Notes: generated by a model not told the origin, from the sequence alone. A stretch of 64,000 nt of DNA from Candidatus Cloacimonadota bacterium (GCA_028695495.1 JAQVIX010000005.1:1-64000), one strand, 5' to 3'. Shown: positions 38,830-58,542, counted from the first letter of the stretch. Translations and numbers: made by a program.

Positions 38830-41800
38830 TTAATCAAGCGTTTTTGGGGGAATAAAACGCGCGATCCAGTCCAATAGTTCTTTTTTACTTTTCTCATTTT
38901 GGAAGTACCATTGCAGCTTTTGGATGCGATATATCCTCCAACCCACGCGCCCCAACACCATTTGTTCTTGCAAACTTTTGACGATGTTTTGGCGTTCATA
39001 AGCTTCTTTTAGATTTTCATGCTCTAATAAGGGGTCTTGTCCATCGCATTGGATGGCAAGGGTTTTTCCGGAGATCAGAAGGGCAAAATCGATCTTATAT
39101 TTTCCCAAAGTAAAGCCGGGAGATATGCAATACTGATAGCCGCTTTCGCAGAGAAATACGCAAACCTCTTCGCCAAATCTGCCTAACTCGGTATTTACTT
39201 TATCTTTAATATCTTCGATGTTGTTTCGGTTTATTTCGTAGCTGGGCTTGATGTTTCCATAATATTCGAGTAGCATTTTTCTCCAGCAATCCGGTTTCAT
39301 ATGCGGCACCACTTCTTCGTGAACGCTATGGAACAAAACGGATTTGTATTTGGCTCTACTGGCTGCCACATTATAGATTCTTTTTATTTCTTCGCCGCTT
39401 ATTTTATCGGGCACGCTGTGAGTAATATTGCCGGCTTCATCCAAAACGGCGCTGGTAGCGGTAATGGTCATGATCATAATATCTCGTTCATCACCCTGAA
39501 ATTCGCGTGAAGTACCCACTATAAGATCAAGCTTTTCTTCATATTTACGGATCAATTCGCTTTGCGCCACCCGCTTGATCAGGGCTTTTTGGTGTTTGAG
39601 ATTCGAGCTATCCAAACAAAGAATACCAAAGGTAGGAATATCTTCATGTTCATCAAGTTTTGCGAGAATATCTTCAATATATTTTACCGCAGATTCCACA
39701 ATAATGGGGCGAGCTTGATTTTTGGGATTATCTAATATATAGTAAGATTCTACCGGCATGCCATAAGGGTATTCGGCGCAGGTTTTAAGAGGAACGATAT
39801 GGTTATCATAGACCAATTTATTTGAAAAACTAATGATCTCCGGCAAGCTGCGGAAATGTTCAGATAAAGCAATTTGATTATCAGAATGAAGGATGGTGCT
39901 CAATGAATAAATGCTATTGTTTTTTTCTCCTATAGAAAATTGTCTTTTGTGTTTGTGTTCATTTAGGTGCTGATCCAGAAGTATGTCAATTCTGTCTTTG
40001 GAAAACTTCCTGCTATCCACCGCCACCGCAGTTTGATTTTCATCTCCCACGATAATCTGTTTTTTGCAGCGGAAAGCAAGATTTAAAGAGCTAATATCAC
40101 ATTGACTGGCTTCGTCAATAATCAAAAGATCAATATGCGAAGGAGTTACATCCTTAAAAAAGGTAATGGCATTGAAGATAGTAGTAATCCAGATGGGTAC
40201 TGCACCTTTGGCTTTTTCCATATTCCGGATGGCTGAAGCTCTGTTTTTTGCTGTATTTTTTCCGTAGCCCTTGCCGATATTCACCAAATCGTTCCGCCAG
40301 GCATTCAGATGAGTTTTTTGTTCGTCTGTAATTATCTGGCTTTTTGTTAACCAGGTTTTATATGCCACAGCCTTTGTATTCATATTCATTATTTCGTTTC
40401 TTATTTTATGTAACTCTCTTATTACATCTTCGATATTGCCAATCTTATCTTCACATTGGATGAGCAGATTGTAGATTCGGGCAAGGAAATAGGCTAATTC
40501 AGCTCGGGAGCTACTGATAAGTTCTGCACCCTTGCAGAAAAGCTTATGAATGTGTTGGGCAGTTTGGGGTAATACCTTTTTCAGAGCTTCCAGAGACTCT
40601 TTGTAATCAACAAGCTTGGGATAGGTATTTTCTACTAAATCTTTGTATTCCCTGTAGTACTGCTCGTAATCCTGAGAATCAATATCCGTAATGCTTTGCA
40701 CCAGCTTAACAAAAATGGGATGGGTCTTTTTAAACCTCATGTTTTTATCGGCACATTCTTTTAGCTTTTTGGCGTTTTCACAGTATTCCTGATATTTTTT
40801 GTAATCAATTAAAAACTGGATGCTCTTCTCATTTTTATCGATGCTATGAGAAACCTCTGCAATAGGTCTCCCTTCCAAGATCATATTGATATCTGTCAGA
40901 TCTTTCAGATACTCATAAATCTTTCTGAAGGGCGCAAAATCTTCAAGCTGGGAAAGCTGATTTTCTATGTTCATTTTTTTTAAGTAATTATCAGCAATAA
41001 TATGCATAGCCTTGAGACGAGATTTATCCTCGTAATACTTTTGCAGTAGCTCAAAATCTGTGCGTGTACTTGCATAAGCATCGTTTATACGATATCTGTA
41101 AAGCATTTTTTGTTCTTTGGGCAATAGAAACCTTCTAATTGCATTCAGCTTTTGCTTTTCACCATGCCGGTATATGAGCTTACTCAAAGCCGTTAGAATA
41201 AAGTCCGGATTTGCAATTTCATCCGGAGGCGCTTCAATTTTATAACCAAAACGAATACTCTCATTGTTTTTAATGTTCTTTATATGCTCTTTAAACGGTT
41301 TAAATACGGTTAAACATAGCTTGGCATCAAAACCCGAAGCATTCATTATCTTGAGTGCCAGATCGTCTTTTTTTATCTCTTCGATGTTATTCTTAAGTCT
41401 TCCTAATATCTCGAAGAAGTTTTTATCAAAATCTTGATAGGGAATACTGGCATAGCTTTTAAAATCAATTTTATCACTTATCATTAGCATATTGTTTTGC
41501 AATGTATTACGATCTTTGGGAAATAGCCATACATCTAAGGGCGGGTATTCGTATTTGATAAGGGGATATTCCTCTTTTTGAAGATGATTTTTATAAGAAA
41601 GCAGTTTTTTTAGCTTTTTAACGGCATCTTCGCCGGCAGACTGCCAATCAATCTTATCCTTTATAGGATTTTCTAAACTAATATGTTCCGCATAGATTTC
41701 AGCTAAAGTAGCTGCACTTACTTTTTTCTCTTTATCCAGTTCTTTTTCAAATCTACGCTCTAATACTGCTGGGATCTTTTCTATTTGATAGCGTTTTTGA

Positions 41801-44045: not shown

Positions 44046-44759
44046 TTAGTTTTTTAATCCTTTAATCATATCCATTTCATCGTATTTGAAGACAATTTCC
44101 ACACATCTGGCTCCTTTTTCTTCATCTTCTTTGCTACTCTTTAATTTGACCAAATGCTTATCTCCAACGCCGGTCGCCAATATTTTATATTTATCTTCGC
44201 CTCCTTTAAAATTATTTTTAAATAGTTCAGTGCGCACTGCTTCTGCTCTCTTAATAGATAGTTCATAATTACTTTCAGATTTACCATCTGTATTCGCATG
44301 ACCGATAATTAGCACTGTATAAGTATCGTAACGTTTTAAATTGCTATTTTTACTATCTGGGTTATCCAGAAATGTTTTTAGTTTTTTACCAAAGCTATCT
44401 ATAATTTTTACACCATTTTCTCCAAGATCCTGGACTTTGTGTTGTCTATTTATTTTCCATAACAGGTCGTTTGAGAAAATTATTATAGTATCCTTGATAG
44501 CCTGATTGTGTGGATTAGGTAATGTTTTTATCATTTGCTTCAGGTCTTTATCTTTTTGCAATTCATTAATCAGTTCTGATGTATCATTTAAAGCTGCTTC
44601 TGCAAAGGCAGCAAGTTTGATTTTTTCTTCCAAGGTTTTTTTTAGTTTTATCGTATTGGCAATAAAGACCAATAGAATAATTATTAAAAAACAGATAGCC
44701 ATATCGGTAAAAACGGTCCACACATTGAATCTGCTCTTGCGTTTTTCATTATAGCGCAT
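44046..44759 (-). CDS. MotB/ZorB-like stator protein with OmpA-like domain
   Basis: 237 residues. A single N-terminal membrane helix carries Asp19 in the setting NVWTVFTDMAICFLIIILLV, where MotB and ZorB carry the proton-binding aspartate. A helical linker follows, then an OmpA/MotB peptidoglycan-binding domain (TYTVLIIGHANTDGKSESNY, LSIKRAEAVRTELF, GARCVEIVF, about 145-230). It should pair with the MotA-like protein, whose gene ends 21 bases upstream, as an ion-driven, wall-anchored complex. No flagellar genes are present. ExbD/TolR-like function is an alternative, but those lack the OmpA domain. Confidence 0.85.
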   Translation of the reverse strand: MRYNEKRKSRFNVWTVFTDMAICFLIIILLVFIANTIKLKKTLEEKIKLAAFAEAALNDTSELINELQKDKDLKQMIKTLPNPHNQAIKDTIIIFSNDLLWKINRQHKVQDLGENGVKIIDSFGKKLKTFLDNPDSKNSNLKRYDTYTVLIIGHANTDGKSESNYELSIKRAEAVRTELFKNNFKGGEDKYKILATGVGDKHLVKLKSSKEDEEKGARCVEIVFKYDEMDMIKGLKN

Positions 44760-44780
44760 TATTCACACTCTTCCAAATCT

Positions 44781-46268
44781 TTAATTGTCCCTATTTATTA
44801 TAGCTTCAAAGGCGCGCTTTAGCTTTCTATCCAGGCTGGTAAAGGATTCATTTACTTTTTGCAATTGGCTTTCCTGACCGGGTATGGTTTTTTGCAGTAA
44901 TTCAGATGCGTTTTTTATTGCTTCAGTAGTTTGTGCATTGGCTTGGCGGATATCCTGGGTTATAGAACTCATTTCTTTGGCTAATTTTTCGATAGTATTT
45001 GCGTTGTGTTTGCTAATGGCGCTTATTTCCCGGGATAGATTTTCCAGCATTTGTTCATTGGTATTTTGCAACGAGTCTTTTAGCTGTTGCTGCATATTTC
45101 CCTGAGCCTTGCGGCTGCTTTCCTCAATTGCTATCAATTGCAGTTTGAAGGCATCGTTTGAGCTTTCTATACTGGTCTTGATATCTTCGAGTAGCTGGCT
45201 GGCATCATTCAGAGCACCGTTGACTATTTCTTTGGTATATTCTTGGTTTTCCACATATTTCTCGTAAGCTCTGTTGCTTTGGCTTATGCTTTCCGCCATG
45301 AGTATTGTAAGATTATTCATTAGATCCGAAGGACGGTTTAACTGGTTTTCCATTTGCCTTAATACTGCAATCTGGCTATGGAAGTTTTCTGCATATTCCA
45401 TCATAATATCAATGAGTTTCTCCGAAAGCGAAGCAAAATTATTTAGGTTTTGGGTCATGGATTTGATATTGACGCTGGACTGATGCAATTGGTCGATAGC
45501 TCTATTCCAATTCTTCTTTACGCTATCGATGGATTTACGTTCTTCTTCCAGTTTTTGGATAACCGCCTCCAGCTTGGCCTCATTACTATCCACCATTTGA
45601 AAGATGTTGGTCGCGCTGGTTTCTATTATTTTAGTTGCAAAATCTTCCAGTTTAGCATATTCATTTTCATTGTGCTCTAAAAGTAAATCGATTCCAGTTT
45701 GAAATGAAGATTCAATGCTTTTTGCCAATGAGTCAAGATCCATTTGTTTCATAGAATTATTTGCAAATAGGATATTAAATGCCCGCGTTCTCATCTTCAA
45801 GACTATGTTATCAATTTGTTTTTGAAAACGATTCTGCAATACATTGATAATCAAAGCTCCCAATAATCCTGCTATACTGGTAAAAAAAGCATGGGAAATA
45901 CTTGAAGTGAGTCCTGATGCTTCTACTTTCATTTCTAAAACATTTGGCAATATCTTCAAAGCGCCCGATAAACCTACAAAAGTGCCCAGTAAACCCAAGA
46001 TACTTAAGCTGCCTATTAGCAAATTTATCATACTGGCATCGCTATCCAGCTTATTATAAACAAAAGTCTCCAAATCTTGTTCGATAAAAAGTAGATTTGT
46101 AATTTGCCTTTTTTGATAAAAAGCAATTCTTTCATATAGCTTTTCTTCTATATCAAATTTGGATATCCTACGACCTTGTATTATTATTAGAAGCCATAAG
46201 GCATAAAGTATTGCAACTGCGATTAAAGACCAAACAATTGAAATAAAAATATAAAAAAGGGTTTCCAT
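44781..46268 (-). CDS. MotA/ZorA-like channel protein with long coiled-coil tail
   Basis: 495 residues. Membrane helices lie at about 3-30, 80-107 (INLLIGSLSILGLLGTFVGL) and 119-146 (SISHAFFTSIAGLLGALIIN), which match the MotA/TolQ/ExbB signature. From about 150 to the end it is a continuous polar helix rich in Gln, Glu, Asn and Ile, a long cytoplasmic tail as in ZorA of Zorya systems. TolQ/ExbB proteins are about half this length. With the MotB-like partner it would form a rotary or gated ion channel whose tail reaches into the cytoplasm. Confidence 0.85.
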   Translation of the reverse strand: METLFYIFISIVWSLIAVAILYALWLLIIIQGRRISKFDIEEKLYERIAFYQKRQITNLLFIEQDLETFVYNKLDSDASMINLLIGSLSILGLLGTFVGLSGALKILPNVLEMKVEASGLTSSISHAFFTSIAGLLGALIINVLQNRFQKQIDNIVLKMRTRAFNILFANNSMKQMDLDSLAKSIESSFQTGIDLLLEHNENEYAKLEDFATKIIETSATNIFQMVDSNEAKLEAVIQKLEEERKSIDSVKKNWNRAIDQLHQSSVNIKSMTQNLNNFASLSEKLIDIMMEYAENFHSQIAVLRQMENQLNRPSDLMNNLTILMAESISQSNRAYEKYVENQEYTKEIVNGALNDASQLLEDIKTSIESSNDAFKLQLIAIEESSRKAQGNMQQQLKDSLQNTNEQMLENLSREISAISKHNANTIEKLAKEMSSITQDIRQANAQTTEAIKNASELLQKTIPGQESQLQKVNESFTSLDRKLKRAFEAIINRDN

Positions 46269-46277
46269 TACTCTTCC

Positions 46278-47576
46278 TTAAATACTTACTATCACATCAG
46301 CTTTGTAGATTACTTGTTTGCAGATACTATTTCTAATCCCAAAAGCAACTGTTTCCACGCAGTTACCTCGCAAATACTGAGATTCTTTTGCACCTACAAA
46401 CCTGCATTCATTTACCGAAACAGGAGCTCCGGACTCAATACCAAAAAATTCCAAATTGTACTCTCTTACCAAATCTTTAACATTTGTTTTAAGATCAGCA
46501 TTACGACTTTCAGGAGAACTATAGTGGTATAGGATTCTATCTGCTCCAAGCTCAATATATTTCTCGTACAAAGCATTATTAAGTGAAGCCAAATCTTTTA
46601 CTCTTTTTACGGATTCCAAAGCTTGCAGGTTTTCTTCCTCACTTAAATCGTAAAAATATTCATTTACAATGGATTTCATCATTTTTACTGCGTCCTCAAT
46701 GACAGATCTGGAAGCACCGATTGAGCCTAAATCTTTGGCAATACCATTTAGCATTATCTCGGTAATTCTTGCATTTAGTTGGTTTTTCTGCGCCGTTTTT
46801 TTAATATCCTCAATGCCTTTTTCGTGTTCGCGTTTCAAACCCAATTTTTCCAATAGCTCATGGTATTTTTTCTGTTTTTCTTTTAGCTTTTCATAATCCT
46901 GATACTTTATATTGAGACTATTAATTTCCATTTTGTATCGTATAGCTTGGTTTTTTAGCAGTTCAATTTCATTTTCCATTCTTTTAAAGTCTTGTTCTCT
47001 TTTTTTCTTTTGATCCTCTCTGTTTGAAGGAGCCTGAGATTGATTTAACCTACTTATTCTATAACCCTCTCCTTCTTTTTCCAGATCAAGCTGAAAAGAG
47101 CCCAAATCCAATCTGCCCAGATAATTTAGCAATTCTTTTTCGCTTACCTTAAAGCGTTTCATTAAAAGCTCTGCCAATTCATATAAGCTTAGACTTTTGT
47201 TATAATGAAATCTATCGTCATCGCTTTTATTTACTTTCAAAATATATTTAAAGGTCATTATACCATTTGCTTTGCTTTGAGGATCTGCCAAAAACTGAAG
47301 CGGGTATTTAACACCTGTCGGTATATATTCATTATCCACCTTGCTTTGCTGTTCTTTTTGATACAGATTTTCTACAGGTTGAAAATCATTACCATTAAAG
47401 CGGTATTGGGGATTGCTTTCCAAATCAATTAGCTCAAGTGTTCCACTTCCTTCCGGCATTAGCTCTTTGAGCTTTTCATGTAGCCCTTTATATTGCGGCA
47501 GCATCTCGTCTAATTCGTCTTCTGGAAGGTTTTTAAATCGCTTGTCAGCATAATTATATTTTTTACTATTTGACAT
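46278..47576 (-). CDS. Cytoplasmic coiled-coil protein with GrpE-like C-terminus
   Basis: 432 residues with no signal or membrane segment. Residues 1-180 are of unknown fold; about 190-270 is a highly charged coiled coil. The last 60 residues (VREYNLEFFGIESGAPVSVN, then GNCVETVAFGIRN, then KADVIVSI) follow the pattern of the GrpE beta domain. GrpE proteins exchange nucleotide on Hsp70, and an Hsp70-like gene lies three genes upstream, so a nucleotide-exchange role is plausible. The match is by eye. It overlaps the previous gene by eleven bases. Confidence 0.6.
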   Translation of the reverse strand: MSNSKKYNYADKRFKNLPEDELDEMLPQYKGLHEKLKELMPEGSGTLELIDLESNPQYRFNGNDFQPVENLYQKEQQSKVDNEYIPTGVKYPLQFLADPQSKANGIMTFKYILKVNKSDDDRFHYNKSLSLYELAELLMKRFKVSEKELLNYLGRLDLGSFQLDLEKEGEGYRISRLNQSQAPSNREDQKKKREQDFKRMENEIELLKNQAIRYKMEINSLNIKYQDYEKLKEKQKKYHELLEKLGLKREHEKGIEDIKKTAQKNQLNARITEIMLNGIAKDLGSIGASRSVIEDAVKMMKSIVNEYFYDLSEEENLQALESVKRVKDLASLNNALYEKYIELGADRILYHYSSPESRNADLKTNVKDLVREYNLEFFGIESGAPVSVNECRFVGAKESQYLRGNCVETVAFGIRNSICKQVIYKADVIVSI

Positions 47577-48792
47577 TAATAAGCGCCTTTTCCAAATGAT
47601 TTGTGGTGGTAAACCCTGGATAAACTACTGAATGAACTGTATTGAGCTCGCCAAATACTTTGTCTTTATTCATGGTGGAGTCATCGAAAGCGGCGTCTGG
47701 CAGGGGCAAAATCAAGGTTAGGTTATATTGAGCTAAAATATCTGTAAGTATCTCATAAGCCATACTCAGTTTATCTCGATCTTTTGATAATGTGTAAATG
47801 CCTATGGAAGTAGAAAATTCATGAATAAAGGTTATTAATTTTCTCACCAGATCACTATCTGAAGTTTCCAAAAAGTCAAAAGATTTGCGGATTATTTCAT
47901 AGCGATCCGGGAAGTAAATCTGCAATTTATGAAAGCGTATATCCTGCTCTGGTTTTACATAATTCAAGATTTGCATCACATTATCTTTTAGCTCCGTAAG
48001 CTCTAATTCCAGCATGGAAATCTTAGTTTCAAATAACTCTTTGCTTTCCTGAGATTCTTTGGCTAATTCTGCTTTATTATTCTGGCAAGTTTCTGCGATG
48101 GTTTCATATATTACATTATTATCCTTTTTCTGCTCTTCTAAAATATTGAGTAAGTGCGTAGTAAGCTTCGTAATATTTTGAATATCTTCTTCTATTTTAC
48201 TGGTATCAATTTTCGAGGAAATAGGATCCGCTTTTGCTATTTCTTGGGTGATTACTTCTTTTACTTTCGGTTGATTTTTGAGCAGTTCAATTTCAAAACT
48301 AAGGTTTTTTAATGAGCTTGATACATTAAATAGCAGAGTATCCATATCTTTTAGTTTTGAAGGTATCTTACCCCAAAAATACAAGTTAAATATGCTTAAT
48401 ACTATTACAGATATTATTAGGGCAATAGCTAAAGCCCCGTAAAAAGATTTCTTAGTCTTTTGTATTTCTTTTATCAAGGTGCTATCGGGATGTGATTTCA
48501 TATCATCTATCTGATTTCTAAGATAAGATAATTCATCCATCATTTTTTGGTCGTTTTTTTCAATTAGTTTTTTTATCTCTGAATTATCAATCTTTTTTTC
48601 TTTTATTTCCTCTCCATTTCCAGCTTTTGAAGTATTAAGGCTATCCGGTAAATTCGTAATCTCAACATTCCCATTTCTGTTTTGACCATTGGGATTAGCC
48701 GGCGTTTTGTAACCGTTTTTTTTACACGACACCACAAAACTCATTATCACAAATGAGAGCAATACAATTAACATTAAGTATTTCTTTTCCAT
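47566..48792 (-). CDS. Lipoprotein with internal membrane helix, coiled coil and GrpE-like end
   Basis: 408 residues. Lipoprotein signal VIMSFVVSC (Cys23), a polar linker, then a second membrane helix (YGALAIALIISVIVLSIFNL, about 118-138) and a long coiled coil to about 290. The C-terminal domain ends FGELNTVHSVVYPGFTTTNH and LEKALINV, again like the GrpE beta domain. If the N-terminus is lipidated outside, the coiled coil and last domain lie in the cytoplasm, which would tether an Hsp70 exchange factor to the membrane. Its neighbour at 48797 has the same lipobox-plus-helix layout. Confidence 0.65.
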   Translation of the reverse strand: MEKKYLMLIVLLSFVIMSFVVSCKKNGYKTPANPNGQNRNGNVEITNLPDSLNTSKAGNGEEIKEKKIDNSEIKKLIEKNDQKMMDELSYLRNQIDDMKSHPDSTLIKEIQKTKKSFYGALAIALIISVIVLSIFNLYFWGKIPSKLKDMDTLLFNVSSSLKNLSFEIELLKNQPKVKEVITQEIAKADPISSKIDTSKIEEDIQNITKLTTHLLNILEEQKKDNNVIYETIAETCQNNKAELAKESQESKELFETKISMLELELTELKDNVMQILNYVKPEQDIRFHKLQIYFPDRYEIIRKSFDFLETSDSDLVRKLITFIHEFSTSIGIYTLSKDRDKLSMAYEILTDILAQYNLTLILPLPDAAFDDSTMNKDKVFGELNTVHSVVYPGFTTTNHLEKALINVK

Positions 48793-48796
48793 TTTT

Positions 48797-49279
48797 CTAA
48801 TCCCATTTCCACGGTGTTTTTGGAGTTTTTGTTTTATTTTGGGGGCTATATACCACTGGTTTTACCGCTTTACTTTTAGAAAAAAAGATTTTATACACGG
48901 AAAGCCCCAGCAGCGCCAAAAACGATACTGCAGATATAGCAAAAATTATAAGATTCCAGAAAAGTAAACTCTGGACTTTTTTCATGTCCTTTTGTTGTAA
49001 TACAAAAAGGCTATCCAGGCTGGCAGTTATTGCATCCATCTTGGGTTCCAGCGCCGAGAAGTCTATTTTTAGGCTTCTTGTTTTTTCGCTATCCTTAGCT
49101 ATGTTTTCATTCAAACCATTCTTCTTCTCGTATTCTTCAGAATGGGCTTCCTGCTTATTTGGCTTATTTGTTTTTGGCGTATAGCTTATTGTTGCATCGT
49201 CTTTGGCGTTACAAGAGCTTAATACACATAGTGCAAATAACGCGGCAAGCAGCATTAGCAGCAGATATTTTTTATTCAT
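48797..49279 (-). CDS. Small lipoprotein with second membrane helix
   Basis: 160 residues from the ATG at 49279, which overlaps the Hsp70 stop by eight bases; a TTG two codons earlier is possible. Signal ALFALCVLSSC (Cys22), polar linker, then a membrane helix (LLFWNLIIFAISAVSFLALL, about 106-125) and a short basic Pro/Lys tail. Looks like a shorter version of the next protein without the coiled coil. Function unknown; probably a membrane anchor of the complex. Confidence 0.7.
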   Translation of the reverse strand: MNKKYLLLMLLAALFALCVLSSCNAKDDATISYTPKTNKPNKQEAHSEEYEKKNGLNENIAKDSEKTRSLKIDFSALEPKMDAITASLDSLFVLQQKDMKKVQSLLFWNLIIFAISAVSFLALLGLSVYKIFFSKSKAVKPVVYSPQNKTKTPKTPWKWD

Positions 49280-51860
49280 GATCAAGTTCCAATTTCCAGG
49301 GGCTATCTATTTCCCTGCCGTTTTCTTCTACATATTGCCATTTGCTATAAATTTTATGAGCATAGTATTTGAGACAGAGAGTTATTTTTCCGGTTGCTTT
49401 TACTACCGGAGGCGATATCTCAAAAGCCAGCGCCGGCTTTTCTTCCACCTTGCTATAGTGAACCGCTATTGGCAGCTTTCTATGAGCGGGAAATCTTAGC
49501 TTGCAGCTATGTTCTTCATCCATATCCAGCCAGCGCTTGAAGAGTACTCTTTCTTCATTCAACGACGAATAGATAAAGAATTTCAGGGTACTGCGGTTCA
49601 AACCTTGAAATACTATTTCCCCGCCCCGGGACCTGTAAATATAGGCACCACGGGCTACGGAAGTTTTAATACTCTCTGTTTCCAGCAATACTTTATCTTT
49701 TCCAAATTCCTGTTCGGCATATAACCTGAATAGCGGCAAACGACAGCTATTTCCAGCTAAGATAATAAAATCTACATAAGGAACGCGTATTTGTCCATTT
49801 TCATACAAGCCCATTATCACTTCGTTAATACGCGACATCTGATTTTGAATGGAGAATATATCTGCATTCCTGGCATTAGATTCTCCACCTGCAAATACTT
49901 TAAAGTATTCTGAGGATGAGTCCAGAGATTTTGCCAGTTTTTGTATTGCATCCCTTAAGTTCTTATCATTTGCCATTTCCTGGCTTTGTTTTATTTTCTC
50001 TTGTTCGTAATAAGTGAATTGATTTCTAAAATGATTTGCCTCGGCACCTGCGCCAAAGATATCATCAAACTTATCAGGTATCTTTTGGGTTTCGCTTCCC
50101 TTACATTTTGCCAGCGCATAAGAAAGATAGATACCGTTAAACTTTTGGGTGCCCCAGGAAGCCGCCACATTTATTAAAGGCATATCATCGTCAACTGCAT
50201 TATAGGATACTATCGCATAGTCCGTTGTGCCGCCACCACAATCAAAGATACCTACCGTTACCTCTTTATTTTTGATAGCATAGCTCTTTACTAACTCATT
50301 TTCCATCAGGTAATAATAAGCAATTGCTTCAGGTTCCGTCATGCAGGCATCTTCGATTATACGGTAATCTAAACTGCGAAAAATATCTAAATAGGTATTT
50401 CTGGTGCTCTTATTAAAGATTGCCGGATAGGTAGCCACTATTTCCCGCGGTTGCTTTTGCGTATAGTTCTGGATGCGGTTAATCAATTCGGAAAGGTAAA
50501 TCTGGGTAAGCTCTATGGGAGTAAAGGAAAAATAGTTTTGTTTGCCGTCCGTATATATCTGCCTCTTTTCCGCATCTCTCATTAGTAGGGATTTAAAATT
50601 AAATGCCATATCCGAGCCCCCGCTGGTATCATTTTCCGGAAAGAGATATTCATGGCTGTAGATATCAGCACCAAAACGCTTGAAGCTGATCAAACTCTTA
50701 TGCTCTTTTAAACCTTTTGCGCTTAATACAAAGGAACCTGTATCATCTATCAAACATGAATTTGTAGTTCCAAAATCGATCACGGCAAAACTGGAATATT
50801 CCATTTCTTCCTCTACCACCATAGCATATTTATAATGCTTTATAATGGAATAAGGAAAGCTATTGCCTTTTATTTCCAGCTCGATGCCGAAGTGAAATGT
50901 CTTTTCAGCGCGCAAATGTGCAAAGTCTGTTTCCGAAAGAACACCCGGCACATATTGAAGCTGGATTTTCAAATCCGCATCATGTTCAAATCGTTTGCGG
51001 TTTTCCACCCGCAGACATTGTCGCGTGCTTTTCACGCTAAAATATTCCAAATCCGAACCCGCTACCTTATTTATATGAGCGGAGGTTTTGCCTATTACTA
51101 CATTAAAACAAAGCTCTGCCATGGGTGCCTTAGGATTTGCCAGGTTAAAGATAGCATTTTCCAGTTCTTTAGGCGGTAAGATGTCGAATTTGGGAATTTT
51201 ATTTACCATCAGCATTATTTGTTTGGACGCTACATAATTGTTTTGATATTTAAGGATTAGGTTGCAGCTTTGAGGTACGGGATTATCTGCTACAAAGCCT
51301 TCAAAAGCTTCTTTGGGAATTACGAGTTTATCCCCTTTATTCAAGGCAACAATGGTGAAATCATGAATATGCAATTCTAGGCTACACATCTTGAAAAAAC
51401 TTCTATTATCGGTAAACTCAACAAAGAATTCTTCGTAATAGCTAAAAGTGACAAGGGGGTCTTCTGTCTTGGAATTAAATACCGGCAATTCATAGAGGTC
51501 TTGCACCCTCAAGCTCAATGTTTCGGGATTTAATAATTCCAGGTTAAAACTTTGAATCGGAAAATCTACAAAATCCAAAAGCATGGTTTTGTTATTGTGG
51601 GTAGGGATTTTCTCAATACTTAGCCTTAGATTATTTCCATCCTTTATGGTAGATTCTGCGCCAAGCAGTTCGATACCGGAATATGATACACTTCTTAGCT
51701 TTAGTGCACTTGAGCCCTTGATATGGAATTTTACAAAAAAAGCTTCACCCAACACGGCAAAGCCGGGCTGGGTGAAGCTAAGCTCCAGTTGAGCCGTTCC
51801 GCATAGCGGGCAAAAATTAAAGGCTCTGTTATCTGGATAACCGCATTTTTTACAGATCAT
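49272..51860 (-). CDS. Hsp70/DnaK-like ATPase with zinc ribbon and beta domains
   Basis: 862 residues. N-terminal zinc ribbon MICKKCGYPDNRAFNFCPLC (Cys3, 6, 17, 20). About 25-345 are two or three beta-sandwich-like regions. The Hsp70-type ATPase spans about 355-740, with phosphate-1 AVIDFGTTNSCL (359-370), phosphate-2 GIFDCGGGTTDY (537-548) and adenosine motif FIILAGNSCRLPL (698-710). A C-terminal beta region replaces the usual peptide-binding domain and lid. It should bind ATP and clients through unusual domains. Its neighbours include two GrpE-like proteins and a tubulin-like GTPase, which suggests chaperoned assembly of the tubulin or motor. Confidence 0.88.
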   Translation of the reverse strand: MICKKCGYPDNRAFNFCPLCGTAQLELSFTQPGFAVLGEAFFVKFHIKGSSALKLRSVSYSGIELLGAESTIKDGNNLRLSIEKIPTHNNKTMLLDFVDFPIQSFNLELLNPETLSLRVQDLYELPVFNSKTEDPLVTFSYYEEFFVEFTDNRSFFKMCSLELHIHDFTIVALNKGDKLVIPKEAFEGFVADNPVPQSCNLILKYQNNYVASKQIMLMVNKIPKFDILPPKELENAIFNLANPKAPMAELCFNVVIGKTSAHINKVAGSDLEYFSVKSTRQCLRVENRKRFEHDADLKIQLQYVPGVLSETDFAHLRAEKTFHFGIELEIKGNSFPYSIIKHYKYAMVVEEEMEYSSFAVIDFGTTNSCLIDDTGSFVLSAKGLKEHKSLISFKRFGADIYSHEYLFPENDTSGGSDMAFNFKSLLMRDAEKRQIYTDGKQNYFSFTPIELTQIYLSELINRIQNYTQKQPREIVATYPAIFNKSTRNTYLDIFRSLDYRIIEDACMTEPEAIAYYYLMENELVKSYAIKNKEVTVGIFDCGGGTTDYAIVSYNAVDDDMPLINVAASWGTQKFNGIYLSYALAKCKGSETQKIPDKFDDIFGAGAEANHFRNQFTYYEQEKIKQSQEMANDKNLRDAIQKLAKSLDSSSEYFKVFAGGESNARNADIFSIQNQMSRINEVIMGLYENGQIRVPYVDFIILAGNSCRLPLFRLYAEQEFGKDKVLLETESIKTSVARGAYIYRSRGGEIVFQGLNRSTLKFFIYSSLNEERVLFKRWLDMDEEHSCKLRFPAHRKLPIAVHYSKVEEKPALAFEISPPVVKATGKITLCLKYYAHKIYSKWQYVEENGREIDSPWKLELDHE

Positions 51861-51877
51861 TGCTACAATACACCTTC

Positions 51878-54800
51878 TTATTGTAATTTGCTTTTATCAT
51901 ATACATAGATGCCTTCACTAAACTCGCTGGTATAGTAAGGCATTTTTATATAATTTTCAGGCTTGTATTCCTCTTCATACAAAGAATCAATGTAGGCATC
52001 CATCTCATCTTTGTTCGGATATTCGCTTGCCATCTTCTGCTTGATCTCGTCTATTACCATGGTTTGGATTTCTTCCATTGCCCATTTACCAATGGTAATG
52101 GAGCCATGGGAAATGGGGTACTTTTCCAGATTCCGCAGGTTCAAAATGATGGCTCCCAAGATTTGGATCAGCTCTTTTACCTGATAGTCATTCAGATTGC
52201 TATCTCTTACTATTCTATCTTTGATATCATTATAACCTTTTTGTAGCAGAGTTTCGGAAATGGATTCCAATTGCTTTTGCAAGTCCTCTTTTCGTTCTAC
52301 CCCACGCTCGCGGTATAAATACCTGAATCTCCATTCATATTGGTTGTTATCCAAGCTTATCTTGTTATAAGAGATTACACCCAATAGAACCGCTTTCATG
52401 GCATTCCGGTAAGCATTGCTAAAGCTATTGAAGCTACTATCGTCCATGCATTTCAGCAGGCGCAGGTATTCAAAATCCTTGGTGGTATAGCGCTGATACA
52501 CTCTATCCGGATCTCGGATATCCGAGTAAAAGGCATTGCGCAGGCGATCAAGCTGATCTATAGCTACCAGCGGGAAGCCGCTGCCTTCTTTGAAGAATAC
52601 TATGCTTTCTTCCAAATCGCTGGTGCTAAAGCCTATTGACCTGCCCACGATCTCATCGATCAATTCCCGCAACGCCATACTGGCGTTATTGTTGATACCG
52701 TTTTTTAGTACCGATTCGTTTTTGATGTTTTGGTTTATTTCTTCATGAGAGATAAAGTTTAACCTCATGCAGGATTGCTCATATACTTTGTTTATGCCGC
52801 GTTTTATTTCCTCGCGGTGTTTATCTTCCTGTAAGAGGTTATACAATTCCTTATCCACGGTTCTGTTTGCCATAAAGTCTTGCATAAATTCAGCAGCATA
52901 GCTTTCTAAGAGTTTTTTTAGATTTATGTTGTTCTTTAGCAATAATTCCTGCTGGTTTGCCAATGCATACACAAAGTACATTGCAGGGGTTTCGCTTAGG
53001 TCGTATTCACGCAGGAAGGAACCGATATCGTCTGAAAGTTTGCTTGCGATAAGTTGCAGAAAATCGCTATAGCCATTTTCTTTCTGGTTCTTTAATATGG
53101 CTTCCAGATCTTCAGTTATTTCTGCTTCCAGGTAGTTATCCAAAACCAATTTGCGCAAGGAAAGCTGCTGATGTTTAAACTCAAAAGCTTTGGCATCCTG
53201 AGCAAAGCTTTCCGACCATTTGCTAAGCGTATCATACATTTGATTCTGATTGTTATTTTCCAAGCTTTCCACATTCACACGAATATGCCTTTCTGCTTCC
53301 AAATAAGCACTCTCTATTGTTTTGAAAATACTATGGTTCAAAAGCTTGCTAATCTGGTTTTCGTGTTGGGCGGCATAGTTTTCAATGGCTTTCTTAAGCT
53401 GATTCTTATATCTGTCTTGTTCATTTTCCAGCCGGTCCTGATAGTAGGCTACAGCTTTATGGCGATAGCCAATAAAGAATAGCGGAATGTTTTGGGCGCT
53501 TTGTGTATATCTCTGCATATTTTGCACAGCGGAGGCTTCCGGTACTGCCAATCCATCGGGAGTATGATAGGTAAAATCGCCCGGATTTTTCTTTCGCGGT
53601 ATCTCTTTGATCTTATTTATCTGATTTGTTTTGATTTGAGCTATCATGGCTTTTGCTGTACTAATGCCATTCTTTTCCAAAGAGCTAAGCACATTGTAAT
53701 ACTTAGAAATAATCTGTTTTGGTATTTTGCTTAATACCATCATTTTGTATTTTTCCAAAGTGCTATGGCATGAACCCACATAATGCGAATCGTTCTTAAG
53801 TTCTTTTTCCAATTCTTTCTTCTTGTTAGCAAAGAAATCGTCTATCTCTTTGCTAAGGCTTGCCTGGATGCCTTCGATATTTTGATAGTCTCCTGCCCGA
53901 ATGTCCGGTCTGTTCAAAAGCTCTTGTACCTTGGTTTCCCGTGCGTGACGGAGCTTTTTCATTAGCTCATCCACCGGAGTTTGACCAGTATCTCCCGTTT
54001 CCAAAGCGCGCCACAATCCTTCCGGCTCCAGAATATCTATATCCAGCTTGCCCTCTGGATCCGTATATAAATCACCACTTGCCTGACCTTCTGCAGCCAA
54101 ATTTGCACAAAGACTGGATAAGAACTTATATTTTGCCCAGTGCTTAATGCGCCGTTTATTAAACTCAATCAAACCCAAACCCATACTGGTATAAGTAGTA
54201 GAATAATAATTGGATATTTCCAGGGTCTTTCCATTTCTGTGGATTACGTTTCGATAGTCGATTTTATTTTGGTAGCCTTTTATCACATTCGTGCGGGCAG
54301 AACGCACATCGGCATCAAATCCGGTATCATTGTAGCCCATGATCAGATATTCTGCCACGATATTGAAGGCTTCTTCTAGGGAGGGCTCTATTTGCGCATT
54401 TTCGTAAATATTGCTTACCAAATTCAGCTTTTTGTAGATAGGCAGGGTTACTTCATGTTTTAGGTCTAAATGCCAGCTAAAATCAAAGAGACTGGGGTTT
54501 TGGTCTTTTACAATTTGATTTGCCGGCGTCATGTAAAAATCCAATTCCTGTAAGGCGGCAAAGCAATTTGCATCTCGTTCACTTTGCGAGCCGGCAACCG
54601 GATCGGTACGATCGTTCGCAAAAATATCCGAAAGGAAGAAGATGCCGGTAGGGATCAGATTGCTATCTATCTTCTGCAAAAGTGCGGCAATATCTATTAT
54701 CATGCCAGAGCCTGTTCCGCCCGCCAATGAACCAATCACATACACATCTATGTCGTTTGCATCGGAAAGATTTGGCACGTCGAAATTTGCATCTTTTAGC

Positions 54801-55282
54801 CTTTTAATAGATCTGCTAAGAGTAAGCTCGATATCTTTGATATTGTGCCAAAAGGCTAATTTACCAAAAGGACGCATGGCACTGGCGCCTTGCTGCAATA
54901 CCTGGGCGCCCATGCCTCTTAAAGCCTTGTAATTGAACCAGTGGTGATAATGCTGATATCGATTGAAATTATCGTAGAAGGATTGCAATCTGGATACAGT
55001 CATGGAAGCATCCACTATATAGTCGTCCCCCAGCTTTGCTGCTGCAAAGCTCTTATCCCACTCAGCATTGCGAATGCTCTTATTGCGGCTATCCGTATCT
55101 ATCCACAAACACTCTATATATTTGTGTTTGTCCAGCCCGTCGTATATTTCTGCAAGTTTGCGGCGAAAGCGCATTACCACTTCTTTGCCGCTACCACCAA
55201 TGCCTATGATCAGAGTTCGCTTTTTTTGATTGTATTCGTATCCTACTTCACTTGGCACTCTGATTATTTCATATCTCGCCAT
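51878..55282 (-). CDS. Giant tubulin-like GTPase (Tubulin_2 type)
   Basis: 1134 residues. The nucleotide fold begins TLIIGIGGSGKEVVMRFRRK (23-42) and has the tubulin/FtsZ signature GSLAGGTGSGMIIDIA (184-199), with an acidic IDTDS strand between (61-65). After about residue 400 comes a long helical, coiled-coil-rich region to the end, far longer than FtsZ or TubZ (about 400). It fits the Pfam 'tubulin-like' (Tubulin_2) group, whose function is poorly known and whose genes often lie near vWA genes. GTP binding is well supported; polymerisation is unknown. It starts one base after the small membrane gene. Confidence 0.88.
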   Translation of the reverse strand: MARYEIIRVPSEVGYEYNQKKRTLIIGIGGSGKEVVMRFRRKLAEIYDGLDKHKYIECLWIDTDSRNKSIRNAEWDKSFAAAKLGDDYIVDASMTVSRLQSFYDNFNRYQHYHHWFNYKALRGMGAQVLQQGASAMRPFGKLAFWHNIKDIELTLSRSIKRLKDANFDVPNLSDANDIDVYVIGSLAGGTGSGMIIDIAALLQKIDSNLIPTGIFFLSDIFANDRTDPVAGSQSERDANCFAALQELDFYMTPANQIVKDQNPSLFDFSWHLDLKHEVTLPIYKKLNLVSNIYENAQIEPSLEEAFNIVAEYLIMGYNDTGFDADVRSARTNVIKGYQNKIDYRNVIHRNGKTLEISNYYSTTYTSMGLGLIEFNKRRIKHWAKYKFLSSLCANLAAEGQASGDLYTDPEGKLDIDILEPEGLWRALETGDTGQTPVDELMKKLRHARETKVQELLNRPDIRAGDYQNIEGIQASLSKEIDDFFANKKKELEKELKNDSHYVGSCHSTLEKYKMMVLSKIPKQIISKYYNVLSSLEKNGISTAKAMIAQIKTNQINKIKEIPRKKNPGDFTYHTPDGLAVPEASAVQNMQRYTQSAQNIPLFFIGYRHKAVAYYQDRLENEQDRYKNQLKKAIENYAAQHENQISKLLNHSIFKTIESAYLEAERHIRVNVESLENNNQNQMYDTLSKWSESFAQDAKAFEFKHQQLSLRKLVLDNYLEAEITEDLEAILKNQKENGYSDFLQLIASKLSDDIGSFLREYDLSETPAMYFVYALANQQELLLKNNINLKKLLESYAAEFMQDFMANRTVDKELYNLLQEDKHREEIKRGINKVYEQSCMRLNFISHEEINQNIKNESVLKNGINNNASMALRELIDEIVGRSIGFSTSDLEESIVFFKEGSGFPLVAIDQLDRLRNAFYSDIRDPDRVYQRYTTKDFEYLRLLKCMDDSSFNSFSNAYRNAMKAVLLGVISYNKISLDNNQYEWRFRYLYRERGVERKEDLQKQLESISETLLQKGYNDIKDRIVRDSNLNDYQVKELIQILGAIILNLRNLEKYPISHGSITIGKWAMEEIQTMVIDEIKQKMASEYPNKDEMDAYIDSLYEEEYKPENYIKMPYYTSEFSEGIYVYDKSKLQ

Positions 55283-55283
55283 T

Positions 55284-55736
55284 TCAACCTCCCAGCTCTT
55301 TGCCTTTGTGAGATTTTACGATGAGCATGGCAATTACAAACAAAACCAAAATCACCACGATTCTCACTATTGAATTTATCAGGTGTTGCTGTATATTATT
55401 AGGATCAATATTTATGATATCAATTCCAATAAATATCAAAGCAATAATTCCTACCCACACAATCCATTTAAATAAACAACTGGCAGCTGCCACTTCGGGA
55501 GCCATACCGTTTACTAAACACTTGTGAAAACTGCTGTTTAAAATATAGTGATATAAAACTACAGCCACTATTGCAACTACCAGGTAAATAAACATAGGTG
55601 GAATACGAGATTCGGAAACCTGATTTCCACCGCCACCAAAATCGGGCTCTATTTCTAAATATTCATTATCCTGAGCCAGAAGCCCGCTAAACAGTAATAA
55701 TAATGCGATTACTACTGCGAAATACTTGGCATTCAT
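55284..55736 (-). CDS. Small membrane protein with three membrane helices
   Basis: 150 residues. Signal-like segment (AVVIALLLLFSGLLAQ), acidic linker (EYLEIEPDFGGGGN), then helices at about 48-65 (PPMFIYLVVAIVAVVLYHYI), 88-106 (FKWIVWVGIIALIFIGIDII) and 121-140 (IVRIVVILVLFVIAMLI). Follows an AGGAGAACC site, 14 bases after the vWA gene. No family recognised; its place suggests a membrane partner of the tubulin-like or vWA protein. Confidence 0.75.
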   Translation of the reverse strand: MNAKYFAVVIALLLLFSGLLAQDNEYLEIEPDFGGGGNQVSESRIPPMFIYLVVAIVAVVLYHYILNSSFHKCLVNGMAPEVAAASCLFKWIVWVGIIALIFIGIDIINIDPNNIQQHLINSIVRIVVILVLFVIAMLIVKSHKGKELGG

Positions 55737-55750
55737 TTTCGGTTCTCCTT

Positions 55751-57331
55751 TTATTGTATTTTATAAGATAGAGTTATTGTTTCGCTAAAATCCTCGTTGT
55801 GCAATAAGTAGAAAACTCCCGGCAATACCACGTGTGTAGCGGTGCTACGGCTATGATTTTGCAAATGCCAATTGCTATTGGTAATAGTTAATTGCCGTTT
55901 ATTTCCATTCTTAATCGTAAAATACCGTCCCAAATAAGTACCATGAGGGCTTATTACTGCGGTTTTTTCGTCTTCAATTATTGCTATAGATTTTACGCCA
56001 AAATGGATCATCAAGTAATAGACCAAGATAATAATAAGCACCACAAAGGCGATAAAACCAAGAATTATGGTGCTTTCATGCTCTGGTTTGATAGAAATGG
56101 TACTTTCCGGACTCTTTTTGTTATTCAGGTTTTGTATTGAGAGCTTGATGGTATTGGAATAAGGATTGATAAAGCTCAATAAATCTTGTTTACTATAGAT
56201 CTTATCCAGCTTCATCTCGTTATCAGAAAAGTATTTTGCTTCAAAATCTGGAGTAAGGCTCAAGCCACCTTCTTCCGCTTCCAGAATTATATCAAAGCTT
56301 ATCCTCAGCTTTGGTCTGTTGATCAGCATCTTTAGCTGCTGCATAAGGCTGGGTTCCGCCTTTATTCTCAAGATACCAACAAAGGATTGCTTTGCCCCAT
56401 CCGGATTCATATCTTTCACCAGCTTATCTGGGCTAATGCTATATTTTACCTTCATGAGATATTGGTCTTTACTATCGGTAGTAATATTAAGATTGCTGAT
56501 TTTTACATTGGTATCCTGTTTCAAATAGAAGTGGTCATATTTGGAGGATAAATCAAAGTTAAACCTAATTTCGCTTTCTTTGCCGCTGATGATCGCTGGA
56601 GCTAATTGTATCTTTTGGTTTTTGCTTAAAATATATTTGCCTTCAAGTGTCTTTAATACATAGCCTGAGCGGCTGCTATCTGCGCTATCTATACGCAGAT
56701 GTTCTCCGGTAATGGGATAAAAATGCAGAATCTCAAAATCCCGCTGCCGCAGATTCTTTTTCAGTTCTTTGAAATTCTCATCTGCTTCTTTGTAAGATAC
56801 CCAATAAGCCATCATACCACGCATTCCATTATAGTATGGAATCCCTTTTACATACGGCGTTCCCTTAAAAGGACGGATCAGAGGAATCACGCTTAGCATC
56901 TTTATATCTTCAGTATTTTGGATTGCTTCATAAAAATATTTGGTGTCAGTAGAGCCACTGCTATTATCCACATTGTCTGTAATCAACAAAAAGGCATTAT
57001 AGTTATTTTGTTTGCTTTTCTGAATCGGATCACTCAAATGTGTGGCTATTCCTCTAAAAGCCCCTACATCTACCGTAGTACCTGGCAATATCTCTCCATA
57101 ATCTGTTCTATTGGGATCTGCATATATTTCAAAACCCAAAGTTCTCTGCGTCATTCCCGATTCTTCGATTGCTGTCTGAAATTCACTAATTACTTGTTGG
57201 ATAGCACCGGTTTGGGCAAAACCCTTCATACTCATACTAACATCGAGCAATATCGTAATATCTTCAGCTAATAAAGAGCTGAAAAACAAGCAACTAAACA
57301 GTATCAAAACAATAAATCTTTTAGTTTTCAT
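55751..57331 (-). CDS. Membrane-anchored von Willebrand A-domain protein
   Basis: 526 residues. Signal peptide (LFSCLFFSSLLAE), then a vWA domain whose metal site is ILLDVSMSMKG (DxSxS, residues 29-33) and LLITDNVDN (about 117). A beta region covers about 230-420, a membrane helix TIILGFIAFVVLIIILVYYL about 431-450, and a C-terminal domain with a FHA-like look (GTYLGRYFTIKNGNKRQLTI) about 465-526. vWA domains bind protein ligands through a metal ion. The vWA would face the periplasm and the last domain the cytoplasm. Confidence 0.85.
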   Translation of the reverse strand: MKTKRFIVLILFSCLFFSSLLAEDITILLDVSMSMKGFAQTGAIQQVISEFQTAIEESGMTQRTLGFEIYADPNRTDYGEILPGTTVDVGAFRGIATHLSDPIQKSKQNNYNAFLLITDNVDNSSGSTDTKYFYEAIQNTEDIKMLSVIPLIRPFKGTPYVKGIPYYNGMRGMMAYWVSYKEADENFKELKKNLRQRDFEILHFYPITGEHLRIDSADSSRSGYVLKTLEGKYILSKNQKIQLAPAIISGKESEIRFNFDLSSKYDHFYLKQDTNVKISNLNITTDSKDQYLMKVKYSISPDKLVKDMNPDGAKQSFVGILRIKAEPSLMQQLKMLINRPKLRISFDIILEAEEGGLSLTPDFEAKYFSDNEMKLDKIYSKQDLLSFINPYSNTIKLSIQNLNNKKSPESTISIKPEHESTIILGFIAFVVLIIILVYYLMIHFGVKSIAIIEDEKTAVISPHGTYLGRYFTIKNGNKRQLTITNSNWHLQNHSRSTATHVVLPGVFYLLHNEDFSETITLSYKIQ

Positions 57332-57333
57332 GA

Positions 57334-58542
57334 TTATTCTCCATAAACAAAACTTGTGTTTTCTTCCTTTGTAATTGCATATATAAGATTATCCGAAATT
57401 GTAAAACTAACCAAGGTCTGTGAAAAACTGGAAGAGCGGGATTGTTCATTCAGATATACATCCAAAATAGCGATATATGAGTTTTTCCCCTGGCTGGCAA
57501 TTATGCATATTCTCGAATTATCGATATTGAGATAATAGGGAAATAGAGATAGAGCCAGATTGTCTTTTTTAGAGGCTGGTTGGTAAGTAAAATTATCCAG
57601 ATCCCACTGTAGCAAACTATCATCACATATTACATACATTAGGTTCTTTACAAAGAAAATCCCGCTTGCCATATTGGGGGGTTCCACCCTCCAATGCGGT
57701 TGCTTGGATGTTTGCAATCCAGCCAATTTGCCCATCACCATCTTCTTACTATCCATACATACTGCATAATAGTCCTTGCCCACAGCAGAGAAAATAACCT
57801 CGCTATTCTCACTATCCCGTATTATCGCATCTTGAGTAAAGGAATCCATACTACCAACATTATAGGTTCTAAGGCAGATTGAGCCAAACTCATTGCGGCT
57901 TACTATCAGGACGGCATCCAGAGAGGTGCTTACATGGCAAATCCGCTCATTGGCAGGCGCCTTAAATATTTCTATTGCGCTTTTACTATCATCTATCCTA
58001 AATAATCCTGTAGGAGTATAAAAATATAGGTGTTTGTGATATGCAATATCCAGAATATCGCCTTTACACACAATCTCGGTAAGATTTGTAAACTCAAAAT
58101 TCAAAACCGATACCCAATCTAAGATATAAAGCTTTGTGCCACATAGAATAAATATGCTGTTGTTTTGAGTAATAATTGAACGGACCAGATCCTTCTGCAC
58201 ACCCAGTTCAAAGCTTTGCGTTTGTTTTGATACACCCTTTGCGCTAATGATGTTTTTGATCAGAATTGCATTGCGATTGTCTTGGATAAAAAGCAGGTTA
58301 TTATTAAATATCGAAATAAATGCACGATCATAAGGTTCGGTATTGTCTTGATGTATTAAGCGAAATTGAACCATTTGCTTCAGCTTTATCTCGTTCCAAG
58401 AAGCAGCAGAGTACTTAGCTATGATCTGCTTTCCACATATCGTACAAAAACGATGATGCACAGGCTGTTTATGGCCTTCTATACACTCATTGAACAAACG
58501 TTTGCGCCCATATACATAAGCGTCTTCAGAGATTCGTTTCAT
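57334..58542 (-). CDS. Zinc-knuckle protein with beta-propeller-like repeats
   Basis: 402 residues. A possible metal knuckle near the N-terminus (CIEGHKQPVHHRFCTICG, Cys20 to Cys36) is followed by about seven repeated strand sets such as AFISIFNNNLLFIQDNRN, NNSIFILCGTKLYILDW and DAVLIVSRNEFGSICLRTY, as in a WD40- or PQQ-type propeller. No signal peptide. It is the first gene of the cluster and two bases from the vWA gene, so it may be a sensor or scaffold. The fold is inferred from repeat spacing. Confidence 0.65.
   Translation of the reverse strand: MKRISEDAYVYGRKRLFNECIEGHKQPVHHRFCTICGKQIIAKYSAASWNEIKLKQMVQFRLIHQDNTEPYDRAFISIFNNNLLFIQDNRNAILIKNIISAKGVSKQTQSFELGVQKDLVRSIITQNNSIFILCGTKLYILDWVSVLNFEFTNLTEIVCKGDILDIAYHKHLYFYTPTGLFRIDDSKSAIEIFKAPANERICHVSTSLDAVLIVSRNEFGSICLRTYNVGSMDSFTQDAIIRDSENSEVIFSAVGKDYYAVCMDSKKMVMGKLAGLQTSKQPHWRVEPPNMASGIFFVKNLMYVICDDSLLQWDLDNFTYQPASKKDNLALSLFPYYLNIDNSRICIIASQGKNSYIAILDVYLNEQSRSSSFSQTLVSFTISDNLIYAITKEENTSFVYGE

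What the first reader, a model, noticed from the sequence alone, without database searches (positions are those of the whole stretch)
44046..58542. Candidate undescribed system: motor pair, Hsp70-like, GrpE-like, tubulin-like, vWA and propeller genes in one operon
Ten same-strand genes with very short gaps or overlaps combine a MotA/MotB-like stator, a zinc-ribbon Hsp70-like ATPase, two proteins with GrpE-like ends, a 1134-residue Tubulin_2 GTPase, a membrane vWA protein and a propeller-like protein. Seen directly: the motifs and the spacing. Known: MotAB-like pairs with long tails drive Zorya defence, and Tubulin_2 and vWA genes are often neighbours. Inference: the proteins form one membrane machine in which the chaperone assembles or senses the tubulin-like filament and the stator supplies ion-driven force, for defence or envelope work.
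Basis: partly seen in the sequence, partly recalled or inferred. Interest (0 to 1): 0.92.

Follow-up and report, generated by a model that had tools for sequence, protein, structure and literature searches.

The report
Motor-coupled tubulin operon with Hsp70-like chaperone
Ten tightly packed genes in a Cloacimonadota bacterium encode what looks like one membrane machine: an ion-driven motor resembling that of the Zorya anti-phage system, joined to a tubulin-like protein and its own Hsp70-type ATPase. The same layout recurs in another bacterial phylum, and the motor-tubulin core is widespread in cyanobacteria, so the system is real, but nobody has tested what it does.

Summary
In detail: ten minus-strand genes (58542 to 44046, junctions -14 to +21 nt) lie in an AT-rich island of a Cloacimonadota genome. 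Tubulin_2, Hsp70-type ATPase and motor-pair assignments are firm. The vWA rests on an invariant MIDAS motif, the propeller on a low-confidence model, the GrpE-like tails on a weak profile match.

The operon is a real unit. It recurs in the same order in a second Cloacimonadota genome, in diverged form in a third (partial in a fourth), and in a Ca. Sericytochromatia genome. The motor pair resembles ZorA/ZorB, with invariant ion-channel residues. A shorter core, vWA - Tubulin_2 - ZorA-like - ZorB-like, occurs in 9 of 10 cyanobacterial loci examined, and a related set on four Deinococcus plasmids. The Hsp70-bearing tubulins form one clade.

Tubulin_2 (FtsZl1) + vWA + OmpA operons were predicted in 2010 as membrane-remodelling systems. 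I found no paper linking them to a Zor-type motor or an Hsp70/GrpE-like module.

Best reading: an envelope-anchored ion-driven machine acting on a tubulin-like assembly cycled by a dedicated Hsp70, probably for defence or conflict (0.45), otherwise envelope remodelling (0.35). It is not Zorya: no ZorC-G, scores under curated cut-offs. Function untested.

The parts
57334..58542 (-). Gene 1, 402 aa, cytosolic, probable beta-propeller with N-terminal Cys pairs (zinc-ribbon-like)
   Evidence: AF2 model of low confidence (pLDDT 57, pTM 0.55), top PDB matches almost all propellers; homologue in first place of the operon in G042, G039, G125
55751..57331 (-). Gene 2, 526 aa, secreted/membrane-anchored vWA protein (signal peptide, periplasmic vWA, TM 422-440, short cytosolic tail)
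   Evidence: invariant MIDAS DxSxS/T/D in 4 homologues; hydropathy; no Pfam or PDB sequence hit
55284..55736 (-). Gene 3, 150 aa, small multi-TM protein
   Evidence: four hydrophobic segments; counterparts between vWA and tubulin genes in G042, G039, G040; a 108-110 aa membrane protein sits there in Deinococcus
51878..55282 (-). Gene 4, 1134 aa, Tubulin_2 (FtsZl1) GTPase with long C-terminal helical extension
   Evidence: PF13809 E 9e-42; invariant GGTGSG loop and DTD
49272..51860 (-). Gene 5, 862 aa, Hsp70-type ATPase: zinc ribbon (1-23), beta-rich region (25-346), Hsp70 nucleotide-binding domain (about 356-750), C-terminal beta region
   Evidence: PF00012 E 5e-9; profile matches DnaK NBD 1dkg E 1.7e-19 over residues 356-714 only; phosphate and adenosine motifs invariant; Foldseek top hits all Hsp70
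48797..49285 (-). Gene 6, 162 aa, lipoprotein-type signal plus one TM helix
   Evidence: lipobox LSSC and TM 112-130; homologue in G042
47566..48792 (-). Gene 7, 408 aa, membrane-anchored protein with cytosolic coiled coil and GrpE-like C-terminal tail
   Evidence: TM 117-135; tail aligns with GrpE C-terminal domain as part of pooled profile E 1.7e-4
46278..47576 (-). Gene 8, 432 aa, soluble coiled-coil protein; GrpE-like tail uncertain
   Evidence: same place in G042 and G039; on its own the group shows no match to GrpE
44781..46268 (-). Gene 9, 495 aa, ZorA-like motor subunit with about 360 residues of cytosolic tail
   Evidence: PADLOC ZorA E 5e-12; family profile's best PDB hit is ZorA 8qyy E 4e-7; T96 and S131 invariant in 14 homologues
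44046..44759 (-). Gene 10, 237 aa, ZorB-like motor subunit: TM helix with ion-carrying Asp19, OmpA-type peptidoglycan-binding domain
   Evidence: PADLOC ZorB1 E 3e-17; D19 invariant in 14 homologues of four lineages
38830..43572 (-). Neighbour, not part of the conserved unit: 1580-aa SF1 helicase with C-terminal MTES_1575 nuclease domain
   Evidence: Pfam hits; PADLOC hits to PDC-S37 and MkoC and a below-cut-off NCBIfam hit to ProA; 473-nt gap; no match to it in the sister loci

Best explanation
The ten genes build one envelope-spanning machine. A ZorA5B2-type ion-driven motor is held to peptidoglycan by the ZorB-like subunit, and its long ZorA-like tail reaches into the cytoplasm. A periplasmic vWA protein and small membrane proteins form the envelope-facing, sensing part. 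When the envelope is disturbed, the motor opens and turns, and the tail acts on the tubulin-like GTPase, changing its assembly at the membrane. The Hsp70-type ATPase, with the propeller as adaptor and GrpE-like tails held at the membrane as its exchange factors, assembles or resets the tubulin structure. Purpose: most likely defence against phage or another invader. SHOWN: gene set, conserved order, motor catalytic residues, vWA metal site, Hsp70 ATP-site motifs, tubulin GTP loop. INFERRED: complex formation, direction of force, tubulin as Hsp70 client, GrpE role, defence.
For: Order conserved in G042 (all ten genes), G039 (nine), G040 (partial contig) and Ca. Sericytochromatia G125 (nine genes). 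Full-length tubulin and full-length Hsp70 matches single out the same four Cloacimonadota genomes of 125, and the Hsp70 one of 386 Cyanobacteriota genomes, G125. Motor residues T96, S131 and D19 are invariant in 14 pairs. The ZorA-like family's best PDB hit is ZorA; the genome's own TolQ/ExbB proteins score only 12-19 bits on ZorA models against 43 for this one. The core vWA-Tubulin_2-ZorA-ZorB recurs in 9 of 10 cyanobacterial loci, with mostly different flanks. Defence leaning: patchy presence (4 of 125), foreign base composition, and neighbours such as a helicase-nuclease, RhuM and an RmrA-like gene, BrxL beside Thermales Tubulin_2 genes, and a PADLOC candidate ATPase and DruE-like helicase near Deinococcus copies.
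Against: No nuclease or other evident killing part is in the conserved unit. Defence neighbours differ from locus to locus and were not compared with a genome background. Cyanobacterial copies could be long-resident housekeeping systems. The GrpE assignment is weak. No physical interaction was tested.
Confidence: 0.45

Rival explanations
1. Same machine, but for envelope work: the motor and tubulin-like assembly remodel or repair the membrane or peptidoglycan (as predicted for FtsZl1/vWA/OmpA operons in 2010), and the Hsp70-type ATPase keeps the assembly dynamic.
For: Makarova & Koonin 2010 prediction (PMC2875224); peptidoglycan-binding domain, periplasmic vWA and several membrane proteins; core present in 9 of 10 cyanobacterial loci and on four Deinococcus plasmids.
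Against: Sparse, island-like distribution of the Hsp70-bearing form (4 of 125, 1 of 386) and foreign composition are unlike a housekeeping envelope system.
Confidence: 0.35
2. A Zorya subtype: ZorAB-like motor senses phage entry and the neighbouring helicase-nuclease (38830-43572) is the DNA-degrading effector.
For: ZorA/ZorB are the closest defence families; helicase-nuclease lies 473 nt downstream on the same strand and resembles defence proteins.
Against: Helicase not found in sister loci; no ZorC, D, E, F or G among the operon genes searched; ZorA/B scores far below NCBIfam cut-offs.
Confidence: 0.08
3. Chance or loose cluster of unrelated genes.
For: None found beyond low conservation of the small membrane genes.
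Against: Same order in four genomes of two phyla, near-zero gaps.
Confidence: 0.02

Closest known systems
FtsZl1 (Tubulin_2, PF13809) / vWA / OmpA operons, Makarova & Koonin 2010
   Same: Tubulin_2 protein with helical extension, vWA gene with MIDAS, OmpA-domain gene, membrane proteins
   Different: Here the OmpA gene is half of a ZorAB-like ion motor, and an Hsp70-type ATPase, GrpE-like tails and a propeller are added; none of these is mentioned in the paper text
Zorya anti-phage systems (ZorA/ZorB core)
   Same: Motor pair with TM Asp, Thr/Ser ring, peptidoglycan-binding domain and long cytosolic ZorA tail
   Different: No ZorC/D/E/F/G; instead tubulin, Hsp70, vWA, propeller; scores below curated ZorA/ZorB cut-offs
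DnaK-GrpE chaperone pair
   Same: Hsp70 nucleotide-binding domain with all motifs; GrpE-like tails in neighbouring genes
   Different: N-terminal zinc ribbon plus beta-rich region, sequence match limited to the NBD, no J-domain gene recognised in the operon; GrpE resemblance restricted to the last 50 or so residues
TolQ-vWA motor pairs (periplasmic force transducers, PMC12204202)
   Same: Motor genes next to vWA genes
   Different: There the vWA protein is the proposed force transducer or rotor; here a separate ZorB-like rotor exists and the cytosol holds tubulin and Hsp70

Membership tests
Zorya system | ZorA with channel residues and long cytosolic tail | tested here: met
   T96/S131 invariant, 364 residues after S131; ZorA best PDB hit
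Zorya system | ZorB with TM Asp and peptidoglycan-binding domain | tested here: met
   D19 invariant, OmpA domain
Zorya system | Subtype soluble components ZorC+ZorD, ZorE, or ZorF+ZorG | tested here: not met
   no PADLOC match to any of these among nine operon genes and the helicase (the 402-aa gene was not included)
Zorya system | Score above curated NCBIfam ZorA/ZorB cut-offs | tested here: not met
   ZorB1 23 bits vs 400; ZorA models 15-16 bits vs 100-250
Zorya system | Phage protection | not testable with these tools
   needs plating assay
FtsZl1/vWA membrane-remodelling operon | Tubulin_2 domain with GTP loop | tested here: met
   PF13809 E 9e-42, GGTGSG invariant
FtsZl1/vWA membrane-remodelling operon | Adjacent vWA gene with MIDAS | tested here: met
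FtsZl1/vWA membrane-remodelling operon | P-loop GTPase or protein kinase partner (frequent, not universal) | tested here: not met
   none among the operon genes
Hsp70 | Hsp70 nucleotide-binding domain | tested here: met
   1dkg E 1.7e-19; fold hits all Hsp70
Hsp70 | Canonical substrate-binding domain | tested here: inconclusive
   profile match ends at residue 714; C-terminal part modelled with low confidence
GrpE | Whole GrpE fold | tested here: not met
   no PF01025 hit; only the C-terminal tail resembles GrpE

The most novel reading that the evidence does not exclude
A new class of ion-driven rotary machine in which a Zor-type motor acts directly on a tubulin-family polymer, with a dedicated Hsp70/GrpE-like cycle controlling that polymer; the cyanobacterial four-gene operon would be its minimal form.
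Probability: 0.35. Interest if true: 0.92.

Novelty: new variant of a known kind. Interest (0 to 1): 0.74.

Why it matters
FtsZl1 (Tubulin_2) proteins were predicted in 2010 to drive membrane remodelling, and I found no experimental study of them in the library searched. Recognising that many sit in an operon with a complete Zor-type ion motor gives them a power source and a testable partner. It also suggests that Zorya's motor core is one use of a wider module, and it offers a short four-gene form in cyanobacteria that is far easier to study than the ten-gene version. A dedicated Hsp70-type ATPase in such an operon would be an unusual case of chaperone control over a bacterial cytoskeletal protein.

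Tried and rejected
Island as a defined mobile element: a 55-nt inverted repeat brackets it (36617/60098), but a 20-nt core of that repeat has 36 copies in the genome, so it is not evidence of mobility. G039 operon as transposon cargo: the Mu-type transposase genes lie within their own 21-nt inverted repeats (15921/19719 of L011), so the transposon is only a neighbour. Viral contigs: no relative; phage records: one partial tubulin-domain hit. Plasmid search with the motor gene: nothing. Plasmid search with the Hsp70 gene: only weak NBD matches, mostly annotated dnaK. Comparing alignment A9 with the Deinococcus motor gene is circular, since that gene is in A9, and was discarded. A candidate real Zorya locus in Cyanobacteriota as outgroup (L120) was not recognisable, so no ZorA tree was built. 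A PDB search with the cyanobacterial ZorA-like profile hit only coiled coils. Promoter and terminator scans gave no more than chance.

Full report
WHAT IS THERE. The window is most of contig C126 of a Cloacimonadota genome (2.72 Mb, 155 contigs; phylum from the titles of its close relatives). At 44046-58542 lie ten minus-strand genes with junctions between -14 and +21 nt, in a stretch of 34-41% G+C in a genome region of about 45-51%. In order of transcription they encode: a 402-aa probable propeller, a 526-aa vWA protein, a 150-aa multi-TM protein, a 1134-aa Tubulin_2 protein, an 862-aa Hsp70-type ATPase, a 162-aa lipoprotein-like TM protein, a 408-aa TM coiled-coil protein, a 432-aa soluble coiled-coil protein, a 495-aa ZorA-like and a 237-aa ZorB-like motor subunit.

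HOW FIRM ARE THE ASSIGNMENTS. Tubulin_2 (E 9e-42), Hsp70 (5e-9), MotA_ExbB (5e-11) and OmpA (1.5e-10) pass Pfam cut-offs. The Hsp70 profile matches the DnaK nucleotide-binding domain (1dkg, E 1.7e-19) from residue 356 to 714 and not beyond. Its phosphate and adenosine motifs and four zinc-ribbon cysteines are invariant in five homologues, and a model of modest quality finds only Hsp70 structures among its top hits. The vWA protein has no family hit, but D30/S32/S34/T97/D119 are invariant. The propeller rests on a model with pLDDT 57 whose top matches are almost all propellers. GrpE-like tails: nine tails pooled match real GrpE at its C-terminal domain, pairwise E 1.7e-4, against 0.42-0.9 for six control tails. 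The 408-aa group alone is weak (0.04) and the 432-aa group alone shows nothing (0.59). I treat GrpE-likeness as a lead.

IT IS A CONSERVED UNIT. In genome G042 (same genus) all ten genes recur in order, Tubulin_2 at 54% identity. G039 has nine in order, diverged (Tubulin_2 25%); G040 has a partial contig. Outside the phylum, Ca. Sericytochromatia KatS3mg068 (G125) has propeller-like, vWA, tubulin, Hsp70, three proteins with the GrpE-like tail, ZorA-like and ZorB-like genes in the same order. The equivalence of its 424-aa first gene rests on place and a shared cysteine-rich, beta-rich look, and that of its ZorA-like gene on place and a PADLOC ZorA match, since single-sequence search did not find them. 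Full-length Hsp70 matches occur in the same 4 of 125 Cloacimonadota genomes as full-length tubulin matches; the other nine genomes match only over the NBD, with reading frames of DnaK length. In Cyanobacteriota only G125 of 386 genomes has the Hsp70. The flanks of the operon differ between genomes.

THE MOTOR CORE IS WIDER. In Cyanobacteriota, 27 of 146 genomes have a Tubulin_2 match. Of the first ten such loci examined, nine carry tubulin, ZorA-like and ZorB-like genes in a row, in two of them with small extra genes inserted, and all ten carry an upstream gene of about 380 aa with a vWA MIDAS-like motif. A second group of ten loci has no motor genes. Four Deinococcus plasmids have a 418-449 aa gene, a small TM gene, Tubulin_2, ZorA-like, ZorB-like, a repeat protein in place of Hsp70 and a beta-helix protein. 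The Deinococcus QL22 motor genes are in the profile used, so the Deinococcus scores are partly by construction; the cyanobacterial ones are not. In 14 motor pairs, the residues of the ZorA-like protein invariant in all are G92, L93, T96, G99, A127, F128 and S131, and the ZorB-like Asp19 is invariant, matching the Asp and Ser/Thr ring described for ZorAB (PMC11890865). The genome's own TolQ/ExbB-type proteins score 12-19 bits on ZorA models, the operon protein 43, so ZorA-likeness is specific. A tree of 36 tubulin domains puts the five Hsp70-associated proteins in one clade (96/93), with long branches noted, while motor-associated tubulins fall in three groups.

MECHANISM. Shown: the gene set, conserved order, channel residues, MIDAS, ATP and GTP motifs. 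From established knowledge: ZorA5B2-type motors use ion flow and a peptidoglycan-bound ZorB, and need the ZorA tail for defence (PMC11890865). Inferred: envelope change is sensed by the vWA and ZorB parts, the motor opens, the ZorA tail acts on Tubulin_2, and the Hsp70-type ATPase with membrane-held GrpE-like tails assembles or resets the tubulin structure. Function is open between defence (0.45) and envelope remodelling (0.35). Arguments for defence are patchiness, foreign composition and company: the window's helicase-nuclease, RhuM and an RmrA-like gene near G042, BrxL next to Thermales Tubulin_2 genes, and a PADLOC candidate ATPase and DruE-like helicase near Deinococcus copies. No background comparison was made, so this is suggestive only.

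WHAT IS KNOWN. Makarova & Koonin 2010 (PMC2875224) described FtsZl1 with vWA, GTPase, kinase and OmpA partners and predicted membrane remodelling; motors and Hsp70 are not named in the text. Papers on Zorya, MotAB evolution, periplasmic force transducers and BREX were checked for tubulin and had none, and wider searches found no description of this system. The library lacks most subscription papers and the 2025 Nature Zorya paper, so absence is not proof. It works like Zorya in its motor but fails the Zorya membership test. It is an FtsZl1/vWA-type system with a newly recognised motor and an added chaperone-like module.

Noticed in passing
L084-L092 (Cyanobacteriota, G155, G255, G225, G144, G227, G164, G245, G253, G192): Compact four-gene operon vWA - Tubulin_2 - ZorA-like - ZorB-like, with mostly different flanks; probably the minimal form of the motor-tubulin core.
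   Followed up: partly
L019, L020, L023 (Thermales plasmids): vWA and Tubulin_2 genes followed by an uncharacterised ~680-aa gene and BrxL, with helicase and methyltransferase genes nearby: a possible BREX-related system with a tubulin.
   Followed up: no
L022 (Azospirillum TSA2s plasmid p2) 11000-26000: Tubulin_2 gene amid several OmpA-family and caspase-family genes; its tubulin is the nearest tree neighbour of the Hsp70 clade (long branch).
   Followed up: no
window 38830-43572: 1580-aa SF1 helicase with C-terminal MTES_1575 nuclease domain, weakly similar to anti-phage ProA, PDC-S37 and MkoC.
   Followed up: partly
L008 7431-13051: Upstream of the G042 operon: RhuM-family gene, and a PARG-domain gene next to probable NAD-salvage genes (PnuC-like and NadR-like by eye, not searched).
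   Followed up: partly
L071 1456-3846 (G000 contig C11): A second unusual Hsp70-type protein of 796 aa in the same genome, separate from DnaK.
   Followed up: no
window 36617-36671 and 60098-60152: 55-nt inverted repeat bracketing the AT-rich island; a dispersed genomic repeat (36 matches to its 20-nt core), possibly a recombination site.
   Followed up: yes
L014 2554-15601 (G106): TIR-like gene (by eye), a 1781-aa membrane-like protein, Tubulin_2 and a vWA-like gene in one cluster: another Tubulin_2 context, without motor genes.
   Followed up: no
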